A DNA stretch of 64,000 nt from Desulfosoma sp. (GTDB taxonomy: Bacteria > Desulfobacterota > Syntrophobacteria > Syntrophobacterales > DSM-9756): positions 1-64,000 of the forward strand of contig JBBFKY010000004.1 in the NCBI GenBank assembly GCA_037481875.1, given 5' to 3'. Each line of letters begins with the position of its first letter. Positions within the stretch are counted from its first letter, which is position 1. The notes beneath the pieces are model-generated. The model was not told the origin of the DNA, did not search any database, and saw only the letters and a program-made list of their open reading frames with translations. Position numbers and translations under genes: made by a program. Below are positions 23,704 to 34,295 of the stretch, piece by piece.

Positions 23704-23836
23704 ACACTTTGGCAAGTTCCGATGGGGGATGGAGGCCGGCGACCATGGCTTTCACCTTGAGTCATGCCCGAGGAACCGGGTCATAGAATGAAAGGACTTC
23801 ATGCAGCGTTCAGCCAAAAGGAGGAGGAAAATGAGC

Positions 23837-24337
23837 ATGATGGCGGCAAAAGAGCAGGAGAATGGAAAGATTCGTGAAGGTAAGTACCTCACATTTTCCC
23901 TTGGGGGAGAAGAGTACGGCATCGGTATTCTAAAGGTTAAAGAAATTATCGGGATGATGCCCATCACGCCGGTGCCGCAGACCCCGGGTTTCGTCAAGGG
24001 GGTCGTCAACCTTCGAGGTAAGGTGATTCCGGTGATCGATTTAAGGCTTAAGTTCGGCATGGAATCCATTGCGTACAATGAACGCACCTGCATCATCGTG
24101 GTGGAGGCTTCGGGATTGGCTGCCGGCCGTGTCATGATGGGCCTCGTGGTGGATTCGGTCTCGGAGGTGGTCAATATCAAGGAAGAGGATATTGAAGACA
24201 CACCCACCTTTGGGACGCGTCTATCCACCGAGTACATTCTTGGCATGGCCAAGGCCGGCGAGTCCGTCAAGATCCTTTTGGATATCGACCGGGTGTTGAC
24301 GAGTCAAGAGATGACACTACTGGAAAAGGCGGCCTAA
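23837..24337 (+). CDS. cheW: Chemotaxis coupling protein CheW
   Basis: About 166 residues. CheW links chemoreceptors to the kinase CheA. The SH3-like fold is evident: YLTFSLGGEEYGIGILKVKEI, then VKGVVNLRGKVIPVIDLRLKFG, the most conserved CheW segment. The frame starts at 23801, but AGGAGGAGG at 23819-23827 favours the ATG at 23837 (9 bases) over 23831. The next gene is a receptor, so they likely form a signalling pair. Confidence 0.9.
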   Translation: MMAAKEQENGKIREGKYLTFSLGGEEYGIGILKVKEIIGMMPITPVPQTPGFVKGVVNLRGKVIPVIDLRLKFGMESIAYNERTCIIVVEASGLAAGRVMMGLVVDSVSEVVNIKEEDIEDTPTFGTRLSTEYILGMAKAGESVKILLDIDRVLTSQEMTLLEKAA

Positions 24338-24504
24338 GCTCGTTGGTTAGTCAAGAAAGCAAGAGTGCCCGGAGTGAACCGTCCGTCCTCGGTGATCAAG
24401 GCGGAAGAATGTCGTTTGCCCGATGAACGGCTTAAGATTTTAAGACGCAGCGTCGGAAAGCTCAAAACAACCAAGCAGACGGAATGACAGGAGAGGAAAA
24501 TCCC

Positions 24505-26472
24505 ATGCGGACATGGACACTCAAAGGAAAGCTTCTGGTAATCGGCGGAACGTTGGTTTTCTTAAGCCTTACGGCGACGGGATTATTTTCCACATGGGAA
24601 GCGGCTTCGGCTTTGCGGGAAGCCGCCGAACAAGCGGCGGTTTCCCAAGCCCAGGGCTTGGCGCAGGTGGTGAACATCGTTCTCGAGGAGGAAATCTGGT
24701 CGGCTCGAGCTTTGGCCTCCATTGATACCCTTGGGGCGGCCATGGAAAAAGTCAGCGCCCAGGGACCGGAGGCGGCTCAAGCCGAAATTGCCGCCTTGAA
24801 TCGGGTACTCCAATCACTTGTTTCAAACATCGGCGACAATTACGAAGGAGTCTTTGTTGCCGACGCCGCCGGGATGATCTATGCCGGAACAACCCCGGAT
24901 GGAAAGACGGACATTTACAAGGGAGTCAAGATCGCCGAACGGCCCTATTTTCAAAAGGCTAAAGCGGCCGGCACACCGATCATCGGAGAACCGGTGATTT
25001 CCAAGGTCTCCAACCAACCTGTGGTGGTCGTAGCGGTGCCTCTCAAGGGCCAAGGGGGCTCCTTTCAGGGTATTCTCGGCCTGACCGCTCGCATTGATTT
25101 TCTCATTGAAACCCTCAGCAAAACCAAAGTGGGCAAAACCGGATACGCTTACATGGTAGATCGGCAGGGTATTATCATCTCGCATCCCAGCAAGGATCTC
25201 ATTCTGAAGCTGGACCTGAACAAAACACCTGGTTTGGAAAACCTGGCCAAAGCCATGGCTGCCGAAACGGCCGGCGTGGTGGACTACGTTTTTAAAGGGG
25301 AAAAGAAAATCTCCGGTTATGCTCCCGTCGGCATCAATGGGTGGATGGTTGGAGCGACCCAGCCTGCCTCGGAATTTATTGAACCCGTTCGCCATCAGAT
25401 CATGGGAATGCTCCCTATCGGTGCGGTGGCGCTTTTGATCACTCTCGGGGTCTTTTACCTGTTTTCGCAAAAGTTGACGGCGCCCATCATGGAATCCGTC
25501 GCTGGGATGAGAGAAGGGGCTGACCAGGTGGCGGCGGCCGCCTCGCAAGTTTCCGGAGCGGGCCAGCAGCTGGCGGAAGGTGCCAGTGAACAGGCGGCTT
25601 CTTTGGAAGAAACATCGTCGGCCTTGGAAGAAATGGCATCCATGACACGTCAAAATGCCGACAATGCCAACCAAGCCGATGCGATTGTCAAAGCGGCCTT
25701 GCGTGACATTCAGGATGCACAGAGGTCCATGGAAGCCTTGATCCAGTCCATGAAGCAGATTGCCTCGGCCAGTGAAGAAACCCAAAAGATCATCAAGACC
25801 ATCGATGAAATCGCGTTTCAAACCAACTTGTTGGCGCTTAACGCCGCTGTGGAAGCGGCACGGGCCGGAGAAGCCGGAGCCGGGTTTGCCGTGGTGGCCG
25901 ATGAGGTGCGGAACCTGGCCATGCGCGCCGCCGAGGCTGCTCGAACGACGGCACACCTGATCGAAGATACCGTGAATAAGGTGCACCATGGGGATCGTGC
26001 TCTTGGAGAAGCCAACGAAGCTTTCAGCAAAGTGGCCCAGGGATCCAGCCGAATCGGGGAACTGGTTGGAGAAATCGCCGCGGCGTCCGGAGAACAAGCG
26101 GAAGGTATCGACCAGGTCAATCGGGCTGTGGCTGAAATGGACAAGGTGGTGCAGAGGAACGCAGCCAATGCGGAGGAATCGGCTTCGGCGGCCGAAGAAC
26201 TCAACGCCCAGGCTGAACAGATGCGCGAATACGTGACACGCCTGGCAGTTTTGGTGGCAGGTACCGGTGAGGAACAGAGAGTCAAGATCTTTCGAAAGAA
26301 AAAGGAAACCAAGGCCTTGGCTTCTACCGTTCATTCAAAGTCCGTGGCCATGGCGGCAAAGCCGACAAGAAAGGCGGGTAACGGCAAGGCTCATGACACC
26401 TTGGGAAAGGGTTCCAAAACACCGAAACCGGAAGAACTGATTCCTTTCGATGAAGACTTCAAGGACTTCTAG
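24505..26472 (+). CDS. Methyl-accepting chemotaxis protein with Cache sensor
   Basis: About 655 residues from ATG 24505, placed behind CAGGAGAGGAAAA. TM1 about residues 10-32; periplasmic double-Cache-like region about 35-290 (KGVKIAERPYFQKAKAAGTP, then GYAYMVDRQGIIISHP); TM2 near 302-324 (LPIGAVALLITLGVFYLF). The cytoplasmic coiled coil has the signalling tip EIAFQTNLLALNAAVEAARA at about 435-455. No clear HAMP domain follows TM2, only a short linker. The C-terminus DEDFKDF is an acidic tail of the kind seen in deltaproteobacterial receptors. Probably senses small organic ligands (inference from Cache). Confidence 0.93.
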   Translation: MRTWTLKGKLLVIGGTLVFLSLTATGLFSTWEAASALREAAEQAAVSQAQGLAQVVNIVLEEEIWSARALASIDTLGAAMEKVSAQGPEAAQAEIAALNRVLQSLVSNIGDNYEGVFVADAAGMIYAGTTPDGKTDIYKGVKIAERPYFQKAKAAGTPIIGEPVISKVSNQPVVVVAVPLKGQGGSFQGILGLTARIDFLIETLSKTKVGKTGYAYMVDRQGIIISHPSKDLILKLDLNKTPGLENLAKAMAAETAGVVDYVFKGEKKISGYAPVGINGWMVGATQPASEFIEPVRHQIMGMLPIGAVALLITLGVFYLFSQKLTAPIMESVAGMREGADQVAAAASQVSGAGQQLAEGASEQAASLEETSSALEEMASMTRQNADNANQADAIVKAALRDIQDAQRSMEALIQSMKQIASASEETQKIIKTIDEIAFQTNLLALNAAVEAARAGEAGAGFAVVADEVRNLAMRAAEAARTTAHLIEDTVNKVHHGDRALGEANEAFSKVAQGSSRIGELVGEIAAASGEQAEGIDQVNRAVAEMDKVVQRNAANAEESASAAEELNAQAEQMREYVTRLAVLVAGTGEEQRVKIFRKKKETKALASTVHSKSVAMAAKPTRKAGNGKAHDTLGKGSKTPKPEELIPFDEDFKDF

Positions 26473-26530: not shown

Positions 26531-26640
26531 TAACCGCGGACCTTCGTATCCGCCAAGCTCCAAGAATTTGTAAGGGCGGACCTTAGTGTTCGCCCAAGTC
26601 CCAAGAACCTGCAGGGGCGGACCCGCGTGTCCGCCCCACC
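26531..26640. repeat. Tandem palindromic repeat, three copies of about 40 bases
   Basis: Copies at 26531-26570, 26571-26611 and 26612-26640 (last one short). Each has an imperfect palindrome of the form GGGCGGACC...GTGTCCGCCC followed by AAG(C/T)CCAAGAA-spacer. The third palindrome (GGGGCGGAC / GTCCGCCCC) is the best. The 294 bases between the receptor gene and the next gene hold nothing else. A related family lies at 59,185-59,400. Confidence 0.75.
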
Positions 26641-26766: not shown

Positions 26767-27921
26767 ATGGGGGTTCATGCCTTGTTTCGTCTATCCAAAC
26801 CCTTACGAATCCCCTTCGCACTCCTGGCCGGAATTTGTGGATTCCTACTGACAGGGTGCGAAAAGGAGCCTATTCGGTTTGGGCTGGCTGGTGTGCTTAC
26901 GGGTCCCTATGCGGACTTGGGCATTCACGCCAGGAACGGGGCCAGGCTTGCCATAGAAGAGATCAACCGTCGTGGCGGGGTGGGCGGGCGCCACCTCATG
27001 CTTCTCGTGCAAAACGATGAAGGGACTCTGGAAGGAGCCAAAAGGGCCAGGGAAACTTTGATTCGGCAGGGAGCTTCGGTCATTATCGGCCATATGTTGA
27101 GTACCCAGTGCATGGATGCTCTTCTGACGTCAAACGAGGTGCCCATTCCTCTTGTTTCGCCGGTGGCTTCCAGTCCCCTTTTATCCGGAAAAAAAGACAA
27201 CTTTTTTCGACTACGACCGGATACAGGATCACCGGCAAGGCTTTTGGCACGCCATTTGGTGTCTCGCGGGCTGAACCGTGCCGGTGTTTTCTTTGACGTC
27301 AAGAATCCGAGTTACACGGAACCGTGGGTGGGCGATTTTGCACGAGCTTTGGAAGCTCTGGGTGGAGAAATTGTGTTTACCGAAGGGTTTGATCAACTGG
27401 AAGCCGGTTCTGACCTTTCCCTGGCTCGCTCTGTTTTACAGAAAAGCCCCGATGCACTGCTTCTGGTGGCGTCAGCTGAAGAAACGGCTCGTCTGCTGGT
27501 GACTTTGCACCGAGTGGGAGTTCAAGCACCTGTTTTCGGCGTGGGATGGGCTCAAACCGATCGTTTGATCGCGCAAGCTGGGCAGGCGGCGGAAGCCATC
27601 GTTTTGGCCACAAACGATCCGCCGTTGGAGGAAAAGACCACGGCTCAGGACTTTGTTCGGTCTTACCAAAGGCGGTTTGGCGTATCGCCGGCTTTCGCTG
27701 CTGCTCGCAGTTACGATACGGTGCGTTTTCTTGTGCAGGCGTTAGAATCGGTAGGGGGACGTCCAGAAAAGCTTCGCGAGGCCTTGGCTCAGCCCAAAGA
27801 ATTCGACGGCGTGTTCGGCCGAATGATAATGGATTCCTTCGGCGACGTGCATGCCGAAAGCTATTTGGTGACCGTTCGGGACAGCCGTTTCATCCTTGTC
27901 AATCCAGGTGAGACGCTATGA
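26767..27921 (+). CDS. Periplasmic branched-chain-amino-acid-type binding lipoprotein
   Basis: About 384 residues if the ATG at 26767 is used (a frame start at 26725 exists; neither has a good ribosome site). Signal peptide LRIPFALLAGICGFLLTGC with a lipobox LTGC, so it is a lipoprotein. The rest is a type-I periplasmic binding fold (LivK/ANF receptor): IRFGLAGVLTGPYADLG, INRRGGVGGRHL, VIIGHMLSTQCMD, and the second lobe from about residue 155. No ABC transporter permease or ATPase genes are adjacent; instead its stop overlaps a sensor kinase by ATGA, which suggests it is the ligand-sensing subunit of that kinase (inference). Confidence 0.85.
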   Translation: MGVHALFRLSKPLRIPFALLAGICGFLLTGCEKEPIRFGLAGVLTGPYADLGIHARNGARLAIEEINRRGGVGGRHLMLLVQNDEGTLEGAKRARETLIRQGASVIIGHMLSTQCMDALLTSNEVPIPLVSPVASSPLLSGKKDNFFRLRPDTGSPARLLARHLVSRGLNRAGVFFDVKNPSYTEPWVGDFARALEALGGEIVFTEGFDQLEAGSDLSLARSVLQKSPDALLLVASAEETARLLVTLHRVGVQAPVFGVGWAQTDRLIAQAGQAAEAIVLATNDPPLEEKTTAQDFVRSYQRRFGVSPAFAAARSYDTVRFLVQALESVGGRPEKLREALAQPKEFDGVFGRMIMDSFGDVHAESYLVTVRDSRFILVNPGETL

Positions 27922-30557
27922 GAGATCGGCCTCTTTTTGTAGTCATTCGAACTTTTTTGCACCGACGGCTTTTGTTCCCTCTGGTGGTGCTGGCTGTGGT
28001 CATCACCTGTGCGCTGATTCCATGGCGCCTTGTTCAACTGGAAGAAGAACATAGGCTGGTCAGCTGGGGCGTGGATAGTTATGTGTCGAGCCTTCTTGAA
28101 AGTGCCGATGAAAACCTGCGTATGCTTGCCCAATCGGCGCTCGCTATGAACACTTCATACGAGAACAGGGTTTTCCAAGAAATCCCGCTATCCTATCATC
28201 GTGTTTTTTTTATTGAGCCGGATTCCTACACGGTCTATCGTCAGGGTCGGCAGGTGCCAACCAAGGAAAGTGTTCCCCCTCCACCTGTCTCTTATTTTCC
28301 GGAAATGCATGTATGGCCCATCTATTCAGTGCCCTATTACCGATTTGACCTGAAAGCGGTGACCGTCGCCACCATGATCCCGATCCGAGGGGGCACGGTG
28401 GTGGGAGAATTGGATTTGGGGCGTGTCCAAAGGTCGATTGACGCCTATCTTCGAAAGGTTCCTCATAGAATCATCTGGATTACCGACCGGTACGGCAACC
28501 TCATCGTGCATCCTGACGGCCGGATGGTGCAGGAACAGGAAAACGTCGGGCACGAACCCCTGGTCGCCCAGGCTCTGGCACACCCTGAAGGAGCCAGGCT
28601 TCTTGGAAGATTGGCCGGGACCTTTGTTTACGGCACCAGCTGGCGTATTGATCCCTGGGGATGGGTGGTCCTCGTGGCTTATCCCTTGTTCCCGGCGCTT
28701 TACCCCGTCGTGGGGGCCGCCACGATGGGATTTCTCACGTTTTTTGCCTTCTTAGGCCTGGCCCATTGGCGCCTTATGCGGCGGCTGCAGGCGGTCGTCG
28801 TGGAGCCTGTGGAGAGCCTCACTGGAGAAGTGCAACGCATGGCCGAGGGCCATATCGGCTTCCAAAGTTCATGGCCTGATTCTAAGGGCACTTTTGCGGA
28901 ACTTCGGGTTTTTGCAGAACGTTTTCGAGAGATGAGCCGAGCTGTGCAGGAACGTGAAGAAGCTCTGCATCTGCGGCAAAAGGCTTTACTTCAGGTTCAG
29001 GAATCTCTGAAGCGCAGTGAAAAGCGATATCGAGAAATTTTGGAAAGTATCGATGAGGCTTATTTTGAGTTGGATGCGGACGGTATTGTCACGTTTCACA
29101 ACAGTTCCTTTTCACGCTTGTTCGGTCTGGACCCCCCGCCGGCTCACCCCTTTGCCTTATCCGACATGATGCTCCCGGAAACAGCCAAGGCCATGAGGGA
29201 TTTTTTTCAAGGTGTGGCGGAAGGGCGCCATGTGGGGCAACTTCGAACCTTTGAGTTTTATGACGTACACGGATCCTTAAAAATAGTGGAAATTTCGGCG
29301 CGCCCGATGCGTGCTGAAGAAGGATCGGTTTGCGGCGTTCGAGTCATGGCCCGGGATGTTACGGAAAAGATTAAAGCCGAAAAAAGGGCACAGGAACTAG
29401 AAAGGATTCTGTCCCATGCTCAAAAAATGGAATCCCTTGGGACGTTGGCCAGTGGTATCGCCCATGAATTCAACAACCTGCTCCAGGCCATGACAGGCTA
29501 CCTGGAACTTCTGGCTCGACACACGGACCCGGAAGATCGAAAAAGCCGTTGGATCAAGCACGTCCAAGAAGCGGCGAATCGAGGTGCCGAATTGGTCCGG
29601 CGCATGCTCTCCTTTGCCCGCCAGGATGACGCCAAACCCGAAGTGGTGGACATCAACAGACTTGTTCACGAGACGCTGACTTTTCTGAGAAGGAACATTC
29701 CCCGCTTGATCCGCTTGGAAGAGGACCTTGCCGAGGACCTTCCCGCCATCTATGCCGACCGGCTGCAGTTGGAACAAATCCTCATCAACCTGGTGGTGAA
29801 CGCGCGGGATGCCATTCCCGAAGGCACGGAAGGCTGTATCCGGGTGAGCACCAGGAGCAGGGAGCCCTCGATTTACGGTGAAGGAGGTGGCATCGTTTTA
29901 ACGGTTTCCGATACAGGACAAGGAATTCCGGAATCCGTTCAGAGGAGAATTTTCGATCCCTTCTTCACCACCAAAGAACCCGGTAGAGGAACCGGATTGG
30001 GGCTGTCCACGGTGTATGGGATTGTGACACGACATGGCGGCTCCATCACCTGCCACAGCCGAGTCGGGCAAGGAACCACGTTTTCCATCACGTTGCCGGC
30101 CCATAGTTCTACCAAGGCGATGGAGCAAAAGAGCAAGAGTGATGCAGAGGAAATGAGCGTTTCCAAGAGATCACGGAGCAGGAGAAACGCACGACCCACG
30201 GTGCTGGTTGTGGACGATGAAGACGATGTTCGGGACTTGGTTTCAGAAACCCTTTTGGAGGAAGGTTTTCGTGTCTTGACGGCATCGTCTGGCGAAGAGG
30301 CTTTAGATGTTCTTGCGAGAAGTGCTGATCTTGTGGACGTCTTGATTCTTGATGAGAACATGCCCGGCATGGGAGGATCCGCATGTTTTTCGAAAGTTCG
30401 ACATCTCTACCCTGAAGTCGCCGTCATCCTGGCCAGCGGATCCCTGGAAAGCCACTTTGTGGAAAGCCTGGGTATGGCGGAACACGTCGCCTTTCTTTCG
30501 AAACCCTACCGACTTGGCGAGTTGTTGGCGGCCATTCAACGTGTCATGGACCATTGA
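27918..30557 (+). CDS. Hybrid sensor histidine kinase with PAS and receiver domains
   Basis: 879 residues. TM1 about 17-36; extracytoplasmic region about 37-255; TM2 about 258-282; HAMP-like linker about 285-340; PAS about 370-480 (ILESIDEAYFELDADGIVTF); HisKA with phospho-accepting His516 in SGIAHEFNN; HATPase with NLVVNARDAI (N box), DTGQGIPE (G1), TKEPGRGTGLGLS (G2). After a Lys/Ser-rich linker a receiver domain starts at about residue 757 (VLVVDDEDDVRDL) with likely phospho-Asp812 in LILDENMPG and Lys in SKPY. Overlaps the binding-lipoprotein gene by ATGA. Confidence 0.92.
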   Translation: MRDRPLFVVIRTFLHRRLLFPLVVLAVVITCALIPWRLVQLEEEHRLVSWGVDSYVSSLLESADENLRMLAQSALAMNTSYENRVFQEIPLSYHRVFFIEPDSYTVYRQGRQVPTKESVPPPPVSYFPEMHVWPIYSVPYYRFDLKAVTVATMIPIRGGTVVGELDLGRVQRSIDAYLRKVPHRIIWITDRYGNLIVHPDGRMVQEQENVGHEPLVAQALAHPEGARLLGRLAGTFVYGTSWRIDPWGWVVLVAYPLFPALYPVVGAATMGFLTFFAFLGLAHWRLMRRLQAVVVEPVESLTGEVQRMAEGHIGFQSSWPDSKGTFAELRVFAERFREMSRAVQEREEALHLRQKALLQVQESLKRSEKRYREILESIDEAYFELDADGIVTFHNSSFSRLFGLDPPPAHPFALSDMMLPETAKAMRDFFQGVAEGRHVGQLRTFEFYDVHGSLKIVEISARPMRAEEGSVCGVRVMARDVTEKIKAEKRAQELERILSHAQKMESLGTLASGIAHEFNNLLQAMTGYLELLARHTDPEDRKSRWIKHVQEAANRGAELVRRMLSFARQDDAKPEVVDINRLVHETLTFLRRNIPRLIRLEEDLAEDLPAIYADRLQLEQILINLVVNARDAIPEGTEGCIRVSTRSREPSIYGEGGGIVLTVSDTGQGIPESVQRRIFDPFFTTKEPGRGTGLGLSTVYGIVTRHGGSITCHSRVGQGTTFSITLPAHSSTKAMEQKSKSDAEEMSVSKRSRSRRNARPTVLVVDDEDDVRDLVSETLLEEGFRVLTASSGEEALDVLARSADLVDVLILDENMPGMGGSACFSKVRHLYPEVAVILASGSLESHFVESLGMAEHVAFLSKPYRLGELLAAIQRVMDH

Positions 30558-32822: not shown

Positions 32823-34295
32823 GTGATTGTGGTTCAGATCGGGCGGCTTGCGGAGCAGTTGGGAGTGCATCGCAACACCATTCGCAATTGGATACGAAGC
32901 GGGCGACTTCCGGCGCGACGTGTTCCGGGCAAGCGTTATTTAGTAGACGAGGAGGAGTTCCTTAAGCTTTGTCATGCCTATGGTTTGGATGCTTCGGCTT
33001 TACAGGTTCGTCAGGTATCGTCGCCTTCGACCTTGCCTTTTGATCCCATGGAAGATGAGGAGGGTGCGGTCCAGTTGGGATCGTGTGCCGGCACACTTCG
33101 TTCTTGGATCCCAGGGATCGATGTGTGTCTAAGCTGCGGCAGTTGCGTAGGGGTCTGTCCCATTGCGGGCGTGGACGGCTCTGACCCTCGAAAGATGGTG
33201 CGCATGGCGGTTTTGGGTATGGAACGAGAGCTGGGGGAATCTCTCTGGCCCTGGAAGTGTACCCTGTGTGCCAAGTGTGAACAGGTATGCCCAGCGGGTG
33301 TCGATATAACGGGTTTCATGATGGCGGTGCGTCGAGCCTGGGATCGGGATCGTATCCCCGGGGCTTTACACAAGGGTGTATTGACTTCGCTGGAGACGGG
33401 AAACAACCTGGGAATTCCTCGGGAAGATTTTATCGCCTGTTGCGAAGCTGTGGCTCGTGAATTGGCTGAAACGGAATGTCCGGGGTTTCGGCTTCCTTTA
33501 GACCTGAAAGGGGCTCGGCTCCTGGTGACGGTCAATTCCAAGGAGCCCTTTGCGGAACCGTGGCAAATGAGGCATTGGTGGAAGATTTTTTATGCCGCTG
33601 AGGAATCCTGGACGCTTACCTCTGAGCACTGGGATGGAGTCCAATGGGGGATCTTTACGGGTGATGATGAAGCGGTGCGGGTATCCGTAGGGCGCGTCGT
33701 GGACAATATGCGTCGCCTGGGCTGTGAAGCTTTGCTTCTTCCCGAGTGCGGTCATGCCTATTATGCCTTTCGAATGGCTTTGCAGCGATGGTACGCGGAT
33801 GAAACCAAACGTTTTCGAGTGCTCACCCTCTTTGATCTCTTGCTGGATTATCTCCAGACGGGACGCATTCATGTTCGATCCGATTGTTTTCCCGGCGTGG
33901 TCACCTACCATGATCCTTGCCATTTTACTCGAAAGTCCCTGAAGTTCTTTGGTCAAGCTTATGACGAACAGGCTCGAGACATTCTGCGTCGGTGCTGTGG
34001 CGAATTGGTGGAGATGATGCCTAACCGGGAAGATGCTTTCTGTTGTGGTGCCGGCGGGGGGCTTTCGGTTCTGCCGTTTCATGAAGAGCGAGTCTTTTTC
34101 GGTCGTTACAAAGCGCGCCAAATTCGAAGAACAGGGGCTCACCTGGTGGTGACCTCCTGCCATACCTGCAGGGATCAAATCCTTAAAAGCCTATGCAAGG
34201 AGTACGATTTGTCCGTCAATGTCAAACTCTTGTGGGAACTGGTGGCGGACGCTCTTGTGTTGTCTCAGTCCTCAAACGGTGAGGTGCGCTCATGA
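32823..34295 (+). CDS. HdrD-like Fe-S oxidoreductase with N-terminal HTH domain
   Basis: 490 residues, GTG start behind GGAGAG. Residues 1-50 ([20 protein letters not shown], then [16 protein letters not shown]) form a MerR/excisionase-type winged helix. Residues about 100-165 hold two [4Fe-4S] motifs, [12 protein letters not shown] and [12 protein letters not shown], as in HdrC. The C-terminal part is a CCG domain: [29 protein letters not shown] and SCHTCRDQ, the cluster site of HdrB/HdrD. A first, degenerate CCG half has [10 protein letters not shown]. Predicted to reduce a disulfide or pass electrons with the HdrA encoded next (ATGA overlap). A DNA-binding head on an Hdr subunit is unusual; the HTH may instead mediate protein contacts. 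Confidence 0.85.

What the first reader, a model, noticed from the sequence alone, without database searches (positions are those of the whole stretch)
26767..30557. Binding lipoprotein coupled to a sensor kinase, not to a transporter
A LivK-type lipoprotein gene overlaps (ATGA) a hybrid kinase with an extracytoplasmic region, PAS, kinase core and receiver. There is no permease or ATPase. A soluble or anchored binding protein as the sensor for a kinase is known for LuxP/LuxQ and TorT/TorS; the ligand here may be an amino acid, amide or similar small molecule. No output regulator is adjacent.
Basis: partly seen in the sequence, partly recalled or inferred. Interest (0 to 1): 0.5.

Follow-up and report, generated by a model that had tools for sequence, protein, structure and literature searches.

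The report
Binding-protein lipoprotein paired with sensor kinase
A bacterial protein that looks like a nutrient catcher for an importer belongs to a separate branch of its family that travels with membrane sensors instead of importers, so it is most likely the clip-on taste bud of the sensor kinase encoded next to it.

Summary
In detail: a LivK-type lipoprotein (26767-27921) overlaps by ATGA a hybrid kinase (27918-30557), with no permease or ATPase beside it. Comparison supports the coupling. SBPs similar to this one form one branch (SH-aLRT 100), apart from transporter-linked relatives. In a phylum-wide sample, 14 of 15 loci with close homologues have a kinase or GGDEF receptor beside the SBP, 1 is cut by a contig end, none has a LIV permease; the next five are all in LIV operons. 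No LIV permease was found in 80 loci from named genomes. The receptor's outer domain is predicted to be a double-Cache fold. It tracks the neighbouring SBP (r=0.77, 34/57 shared splits) far better than its own kinase core (r=0.11, 17/57). Outputs vary: kinases, GGDEF-EAL, HD-GYP. Best reading: a dedicated SBP-dCache sensing module on exchangeable outputs, working like LuxPQ or NspS-MbaA but built from another SBP family. Binding, ligand and output are untested. The window SBP lacks the acidic residue that holds the amino group in leucine-binding protein, so the amino-acid guess is weak. New variant of a known kind.

The parts
26767..27921 (+). LivK-type substrate-binding lipoprotein, 384 aa
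   Evidence: AlphaFold2 mean pLDDT 92.5; VIA Z 43.0, rmsd 2.0, 338 aligned to 3td9, a LivK
26848..26859 (+). lipobox L-T-G-C, Cys31 as the lipid anchor
   Evidence: sequence read. In this genome's SBPs: lipobox seen by eye in the 3 receptor-linked copies, none by pattern in the first 60 residues of the 9 transporter-linked copies
26869..27879 (+). Peripla_BP_6 domain
   Evidence: (158.7 bits, cut-off 31.7)
27918..27921 (+). ATGA start/stop overlap of the two genes
27918..30557 (+). hybrid histidine kinase, 879 aa (dCache, PAS, HisKA, HATPase, receiver)
28023..28715 (+). extracytoplasmic double-Cache-like sensor domain, model residues 36-266, between two transmembrane helices
   Evidence: AlphaFold2 mean pLDDT 86.8; VIA Z 19.1, rmsd 3.5, 225 aligned to 4wy9; transmembrane segments inferred from the long hydrophobic helices
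29025..29360 (+). PAS domain
   Evidence: E=9e-11
29436..29627 (+). HisKA domain, phospho-acceptor His516 (HEFNN)
29757..30101 (+). HATPase_c domain
   Evidence: E=9.6e-27
30201..30539 (+). C-terminal receiver domain, acceptor Asp in LDENMPG
24484..26472 (+). dCache chemoreceptor (MCP) upstream; possible second client of the SBP, not counted as part of the pair
   Evidence: adjacent in G002, 4.6 kb away in G001

Best explanation
The two genes form one signalling receptor. The lipid-anchored LivK-type protein catches a small molecule in the periplasm. Its open or closed form is read by the double-Cache outer domain of the kinase, which sets the kinase/phosphatase balance; phosphate then passes from His516 to the kinase's own receiver and on to a non-adjacent partner. 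The SBP belongs to a branch given over to receptors and not to importers. SBP plus dCache domain is the unit kept in evolution, while the cytoplasmic output is exchanged among lineages (HisKA kinases with or without receiver, HisKA_2 kinases, GGDEF-EAL, GGDEF, HD-GYP). Shown here: the genes, predicted folds, intact motifs, conserved pairing, absence of LIV permeases nearby, and co-divergence of SBP with the outer domain. Inferred: physical contact, ligand-dependent switching, phosphotransfer, downstream partner.
For: Conserved pairing. Single branch with SH-aLRT 100. SBP versus outer domain r=0.80 (85 pairs; none of 2000 permutations as high); in 60 kinase pairs r=0.77, against 0.16 for SBP-core and 0.11 for domain-core. 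Shared splits 46/77 (200 shuffles: mean 0.2, max 2); in 60 kinases 34/57 against 19 and 17. Every BPD_transp_2 permease pair of the genome has its own SBP. Two paralogous SBP-kinase pairs in the same genome. A solved natural chain, 5ERE, carries a Peripla_BP_6-type domain followed by a dCache domain. A dCache amino-acid motif recalled as RxWY occurs in 0 of 85 receptors.
Against: No contact or ligand data. Adjacent SBP and kinase genes agtB/PA0602-AgtS and PA4985-AruS showed no interaction (PMC11113362). Among the 312 row pairs with similar kinase cores (identity above 0.38), SBP and core also correlate (r=0.73), so exchange is seen only over longer distances. One strong receptor homologue has no SBP within the 9.2 kb fetched (L197). 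ABC ATPase-like ORFs, without a LIV permease, lie some kilobases away in a few loci (L111, L143, L156, L173; L184, L188, L189). The 5ERE SBP half is more distant than true LivJ proteins, so it is an independent fusion, and its dCache is listed with cytosine bound (PMC8694187). The upstream chemoreceptor is an alternative partner. RxWY was also absent from the window chemoreceptor, so its absence is weak evidence.
Confidence: 0.8

Rival explanations
1. The SBP is a spare binding protein for one of the genome's LIV-type importers and only happens to lie beside a kinase.
For: Its fold and closest solved structures are importer SBPs, and the genome encodes 9 LIV importers with Peripla_BP_6 proteins.
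Against: All 10 permease pairs have a binding protein in their own cluster. The receptor-linked SBPs are one branch apart from importer SBPs. No LIV permease match (E<=1e-5) in any of 80 homologous loci.
Confidence: 0.06
2. The SBP mainly serves the upstream dCache chemoreceptor (24484-26472), or both it and the kinase, giving taxis and gene control from one ligand.
For: MCP and CheW lie upstream on the same strand here and in G002; the second SBP-kinase pair also has a large MCP 66-323 bases upstream of the SBP in G000, G001 and G002. L157 and L129 have an MCP upstream too.
Against: In G001 the MCP of the first pair is 4.6 kb away with another kinase gene between. An MCP ending within 600 bases upstream was found in only 4 of 80 loci, two of them from the Desulfosoma MAG itself. 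The 295-base gap in the window suggests a separate transcript.
Confidence: 0.08
3. The dCache domain binds the signal itself; the SBP is a carrier or buffer, or is unrelated.
For: Many of the closest dCache folds are solved with small ligands (row titles), and the dCache part of 5ERE is listed with cytosine (PMC8694187). The Pseudomonas precedents of adjacent but unlinked SBP and kinase genes (PMC11113362).
Against: Strong co-divergence of SBP and outer domain; 0 of 85 receptors carry the recalled RxWY motif.
Confidence: 0.1

Closest known systems
LuxP/LuxQ (Vibrio, AI-2)
   Same: Periplasmic binding protein read by the outer domain of a hybrid kinase; genes adjacent (recalled). PMC8694187 (one passage) lists LuxQ under Cache without cofactor or ligand.
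   Different: The SBP here is Peripla_BP_6 (LivK type), and there is a PAS domain and no known partner regulator. LuxP is recalled to be of another SBP family. LuxQ was not among the rows shown.
TorT/TorS (E. coli, TMAO)
   Same: SBP-dependent hybrid kinase (recalled).
   Different: TorS is recalled to have a helical-bundle sensor and a longer phosphorelay; here dCache and one receiver. NCBIfam TorS model 120 bits against a cut-off of 676.5.
NspS/MbaA (Vibrio cholerae, polyamines)
   Same: SBP plus GGDEF-EAL receptor, the arrangement of 11 of the 80 loci.
   Different: Polyamine-type SBP (recalled); different receptor. Papers seen only as a search listing with the start of their abstracts.
LivK/LivJ and AmiC (Peripla_BP_6 proteins)
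   Same: Same fold over the whole domain (Z 43.0 for 3td9, 37.8 for 1qo0).
   Different: LivK/LivJ feed importers and AmiC is cytoplasmic with AmiR (recalled). This branch is linked to receptors and has its own residues, e.g. Trp261 in 84/85 against 1/20 transporter-linked.
5ERE, Dret_0059 of Desulfohalobium retbaense
   Same: One chain with a Peripla_BP_6-type domain (11-322) followed by a dCache domain (Z 17.9; 333-427, E=4.3e-5); the same order as the gene pair.
   Different: Covalent fusion and a more distant SBP (E=1.4e-16 against 1.6e-49 for LivJ 4gnr); PMC8694187 (one passage) lists its dCache with cytosine.

Membership tests
SBP-activated sensor kinases (functional class) | Secreted or anchored SBP encoded with a kinase that has an extracytoplasmic domain between two membrane helices | tested here: met
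   (signal and membrane helices read from sequence and model)
SBP-activated sensor kinases (functional class) | Pairing conserved across lineages | tested here: met
SBP-activated sensor kinases (functional class) | SBP binds the outer domain and ligand changes kinase activity | not testable with these tools
   no complex prediction or assay available; only co-divergence
LuxPQ | SBP of LuxP's family (recalled as not Peripla_BP_6) | tested here: not met
   only Peripla_BP_6, ANF_receptor and Peripla_BP_5 match at E<=0.001
LuxPQ | Two-subdomain PAS/Cache outer domain like LuxQ's | tested here: inconclusive
   dCache fold found; LuxQ itself is not in the 50 rows shown
TorTS | TorS equivalog model | tested here: not met
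   120 bits, cut-off 676.5
CckA hybrid kinases | NCBIfam CckA equivalog score | tested here: not met
   332 bits, cut-off 1000
HAAT/LIV ABC importer | Peripla_BP_6 binding protein | tested here: met
   158.6 bits, cut-off 31.7
HAAT/LIV ABC importer | Permease and ATPase genes in the same operon | tested here: not met
dCache_1 sensor domains | Pfam PF02743 match | tested here: inconclusive
   none in the window copy at E<=0.1; 10 of 19 rows match
dCache_1 sensor domains | Double-Cache fold | tested here: met
   Z 19.1, rmsd 3.5, 225 aligned (4wy9), and many dCache rows at Z 16-18

The most novel reading that the evidence does not exclude
A whole branch of LivK-type lipoproteins, found by record title (many of them MAGs) in Desulfobacterota, Spirochaetes, Chloroflexi, Beta- and Gammaproteobacteria and others, has left transport and become a dedicated detachable sensing subunit. 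With its dCache docking domain it forms one evolutionary module, moved repeatedly (at least 8 output changes on the SBP tree) onto kinases, c-di-GMP enzymes and HD-GYP proteins. The dCache domain reads the state of the SBP and no longer a ligand of its own, and co-inheritance of SBP and docking domain overrides the linkage of domains inside one polypeptide.
Probability: 0.6. Interest if true: 0.65.

Novelty: new variant of a known kind. Interest (0 to 1): 0.5.

Why it matters
PMC11113362 (introduction and discussion) says that the signals of most receptors are unknown, that SBP-receptor interactions are not straightforward to identify, and that gene proximity alone does not prove a couple. Here a recognisable SBP branch (Asp50, Arg56, Asp144, Asn180, Trp261) predicts that its neighbour is a receptor, across phyla and output types. 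That would make ligand identification for many orphan kinases and c-di-GMP enzymes a matter of screening a soluble protein. It would also warn that genes of this branch, if annotated as branched-chain amino acid importer proteins, are more likely sensors.

Tried and rejected
Ligand from pocket residues: contacts of E. coli leucine-binding protein (recalled; the letters at those positions agreed) show Ser79 and Thr102 kept as Ser112 and Ser135, but Asp121, Tyr202 and Glu226 replaced by Thr153, Ser236 and Gly260. Glu at the 226 position is present in 28 of 85 rows of the branch, so ligands probably differ within it. This speaks against a canonical alpha-amino acid but names no ligand.

A fused SBP-dCache-output gene close to this branch was looked for in the open-frame column and in ORF tables; none was found, but no exhaustive search was made.

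HPt and partner: the genome has 3 Hpt matches, one inside the third SBP-kinase pair; nothing points to the partner of the window kinase. Promoter- and terminator-like sites were about as many as in shuffles (3 against 1.8, 5 against 7.2). A lipobox count by pattern over 89 SBPs gave 63 and misses some real ones. The aligned-column count of Cys31 (65/76 in the branch, 0/20 transporter-linked) overstates the contrast: 5 of 20 transporter-linked rows match a lipobox pattern elsewhere in their first 60 residues, all from other genomes, of which LAGC in L192 and L194 looks genuine. LuxQ did not appear in the 50 rows; not evidence of difference.

Literature: searches gave no paper in their listings that is evidently about a receptor-dedicated Peripla_BP_6 branch; most subscription papers, and the 2021 review on SBPs in signal transduction by the DOI I recalled, are not held, and one search of ten was left unused. 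PMC11113362: outline with abstract, introduction and discussion read. PMC9602780, PMC8694187, PMC8846402: passages only. All others: search listings only.
Full report
What is there. The lipoprotein gene runs from ATG 26767 to TGA 27921 and the kinase gene from ATG 27918 to 30557, sharing ATGA. The first product has a signal ending in LTGC and a Peripla_BP_6 domain (158.6 bits, cut-off 31.7). The second has PAS, HisKA, HATPase_c and Response_reg domains with intact catalytic motifs. Upstream on the same strand are CheW (23801-24337) and a dCache chemoreceptor (24484-26472); downstream are a HycI-type hydrogenase maturation protease and an unusual HTH/Fe-S protein. The genome is a relative of uncultured Desulfosoma: the nearest SBP in a named record, 56% identical, is from a Desulfosoma MAG.

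Own genome. It holds 14 Peripla_BP_6 matches. Nine lie in clusters with LIV permeases and ATPases, three lie beside a receptor kinase (C4:26767, C2:269537, C4:102028), and two are elsewhere: one TPR-fused beside an Hsp70 gene and one beside an EngA-type GTPase. The 20 BPD_transp_2 permeases form 10 pairs. Nine pairs are clustered with a Peripla_BP_6 protein (in L048 the SBP is 2.7 kb from the ATPase) and the tenth with a Bmp protein, so no such importer lacks a binding protein. By lipobox, the three receptor-linked SBPs are lipoproteins (by eye) and none of the nine importer SBPs is (by pattern).

Linkage in relatives. In 40 genomes (the window's and 39 relatives), P0001 gave 25 matches at E<=1e-25. 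The 21 best (E<=1.3e-43, the window's own included) all have a receptor or kinase ORF downstream; in L083 only its cut N-terminal part is seen, and in L092 the kinase ORF starts 0.5 kb on without a detected sensor region. The remaining 4 (E>=5.1e-27) are all in permease clusters. An even sample of 148 genomes of the phylum was searched. Of its hits not yet fetched I took the best 20 loci (21 hits): of the 15 loci at E<=1.7e-36, 14 have a kinase or GGDEF receptor beside the SBP (in L187 and L191 no sensor region was recognised) and 1 (L189) runs into a contig end; none has a LIV permease. All 5 of the next (E 3.3e-33 to 1.2e-31) have LIV permeases.

Named genomes. In genome contigs, the best 80 of 132 relatives were kept (the scan used one peptide pattern, so it leans to this branch). 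In 72 of 80 the sensor-domain ORF lies directly downstream on the same strand: 25 HisKA kinases with receiver, 19 without, 8 HisKA_2 (one cut), 11 GGDEF-EAL, 1 HD-GYP, 3 with sensor only, 5 sensor ORFs cut by the contig end. The other 8: L165 and L170 have the receptor but its ORF was called too long; L141 and L161 have a kinase in divergent orientation; L174 has a kinase 390 bases away; L171 ends 107 bases on; L142 and L176 show no sensor ORF. No LIV permease match (E<=1e-5) was found in the 80 loci, which hold 3.0 to 15.1 kb each. ABC ATPase-like ORFs lie some kilobases away in L111, L143, L156 and L173 and, in the phylum sample, in L184, L188 and L189, without such a permease.

Receptor side. 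A profile of the outer domain (built from receptors beside these SBPs, hence biased to them) gave 22 matches at E<=1e-30 over 59 genomes. Of the 11 at E<=1e-50, 10 are receptors beside SBPs of this branch, and one (L197) has no SBP in the 9.2 kb fetched. Of the 11 weaker ones, one (L094) is beside an SBP of this branch, two lie next to an SBP plus LIV permeases (L198, L199), one is beside two other SBPs (L201), and seven show no SBP in the stretch fetched (L200, L202-L207). The L198/L199 type hints that dedicated pairs arose from operons in which SBP, importer and sensor were together.

One branch. A tree of 45 SBPs of this homologue set (the window's and 44 drawn at random of 84), 20 transporter-linked SBPs and leucine-binding protein puts each group on one side of a single branch, SH-aLRT 100 (quick method, several long rows, transporter rows all from this phylum apart from leucine-binding protein). 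The 45 were chosen by similarity, not by neighbour: they include L176, where no receptor was seen, and L161, where the kinase is divergent. Residues common in the branch and rare in the others include Asp50 (81/85 vs 0/21), Arg56 (84/85 vs 1/21), Asp144 (84/85 vs 3/21), Asn180 (82/85 vs 3/21) and Trp261 (84/85 vs 1/21).

Co-divergence. Distances between SBPs correlate with distances between the outer domains of their neighbours: r=0.80 over 85 pairs, none of 2000 permutations as high. For 60 pairs with a HisKA core, r is 0.77 for SBP with outer domain, 0.16 for SBP with core and 0.11 for outer domain with core, although the last two sit in one polypeptide. Rank correlations on 55 rows are 0.76, 0.10 and 0.06, and the result holds without the window's own group (50 rows: 0.79, 0.19, 0.12). 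The outer domain is more diverged than the core (median identity 0.20 against 0.28), so saturation does not explain it. Among the 312 closest core pairs, SBP and core do correlate (0.73; SBP and outer domain 0.81). SBP and outer-domain trees share 46 of 77 splits (200 shuffles: mean 0.2, max 2); in the kinase subset SBP and domain share 34 of 57, SBP and core 19, domain and core 17. Output type needs at least 8 changes on the SBP tree. SBP and outer domain are thus inherited together while outputs are exchanged. This is what a binding interface would require, but co-inheritance of neighbouring genes alone would also give part of it.

Structure. The SBP model (mean pLDDT 92.5) matches LivK/LivJ/AmiC structures over its whole length (Z 43.0, 2.0 A, 338 residues for 3td9). 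The kinase N-terminus (mean pLDDT 86.8) matches double-Cache domains (4wy9 Z 19.1, 3.5 A, 225 aligned; 6d8v Z 18.6). One match, 5ERE (Z 17.9, 2.9 A, 203 aligned), is a solved protein of Desulfohalobium retbaense whose N-terminal part is a Peripla_BP_6-type domain. Nature has therefore also joined the two modules in one chain, although its SBP part is more distant. Its cytosine-bound dCache (PMC8694187, one passage) shows that a dCache next to an SBP can still bind a ligand.

Third pair. In the same genome the pair at C4:102028 consists of SBP, a dCache-HisKA-HATPase-REC-REC-Hpt kinase and an adjoining REC-GGDEF protein, with the same order in G001 and G002 judged by receiver matches. Together with the GGDEF-EAL receptors elsewhere, c-di-GMP is a recurrent output; for the window pair itself the output is unknown.

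Known context. [quoted passage not shown] whether Peripla_BP_6 is among them I could not establish. The principle is known; a receptor-dedicated LivK-type branch with exchangeable outputs was not evident in the listings of searches.

Verdict. It is a new variant of a known kind; ligand, contact and output remain to be tested.

Noticed in passing
window 23801-26472: CheW and a dCache chemoreceptor directly upstream of the pair, conserved in two congeners (adjacent in one, 4.6 kb away in the other); the second SBP-kinase pair also has an MCP upstream.
   Followed up: partly
L077:4744-8184: 1146-aa chemoreceptor upstream of the second pair with Cache_3-Cache_2, a further dCache match, MCP signal and a C-terminal hemerythrin domain.
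   Followed up: no
window 26574-26636: Two copies of a GC-rich palindrome GGGCGGACNNNNGTGTNCGCCC in the gap before the SBP gene; none expected by chance, but the pattern was drawn from these copies.
   Followed up: no
window 32823-34295: A protein with an N-terminal helix-turn-helix (HTH_17), 4Fe-4S and CCG domains, next to a hydrogenase maturation protease; looks like an Fe-S oxidoreductase fused to a DNA-binding domain.
   Followed up: no
L078:7002-12250 (G000:C4:102001-107249): Third SBP pair: kinase with two receivers and Hpt, followed by a REC-GGDEF protein, so the likely output is c-di-GMP.
   Followed up: partly
L051:5156-9175: A TPR protein with a C-terminal Peripla_BP_6 domain next to an Hsp70 gene; no LIV permease match in the locus.
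   Followed up: no
L180:5038-7324, L201:6007-8770: Two SBP genes in tandem beside one receptor kinase; one match of the L180 pair was listed with an in-frame TGA.
   Followed up: no
L198, L199: Receptor kinase, SBP and LIV permeases in one same-strand cluster; a possible ancestral or dual-use arrangement.
   Followed up: partly
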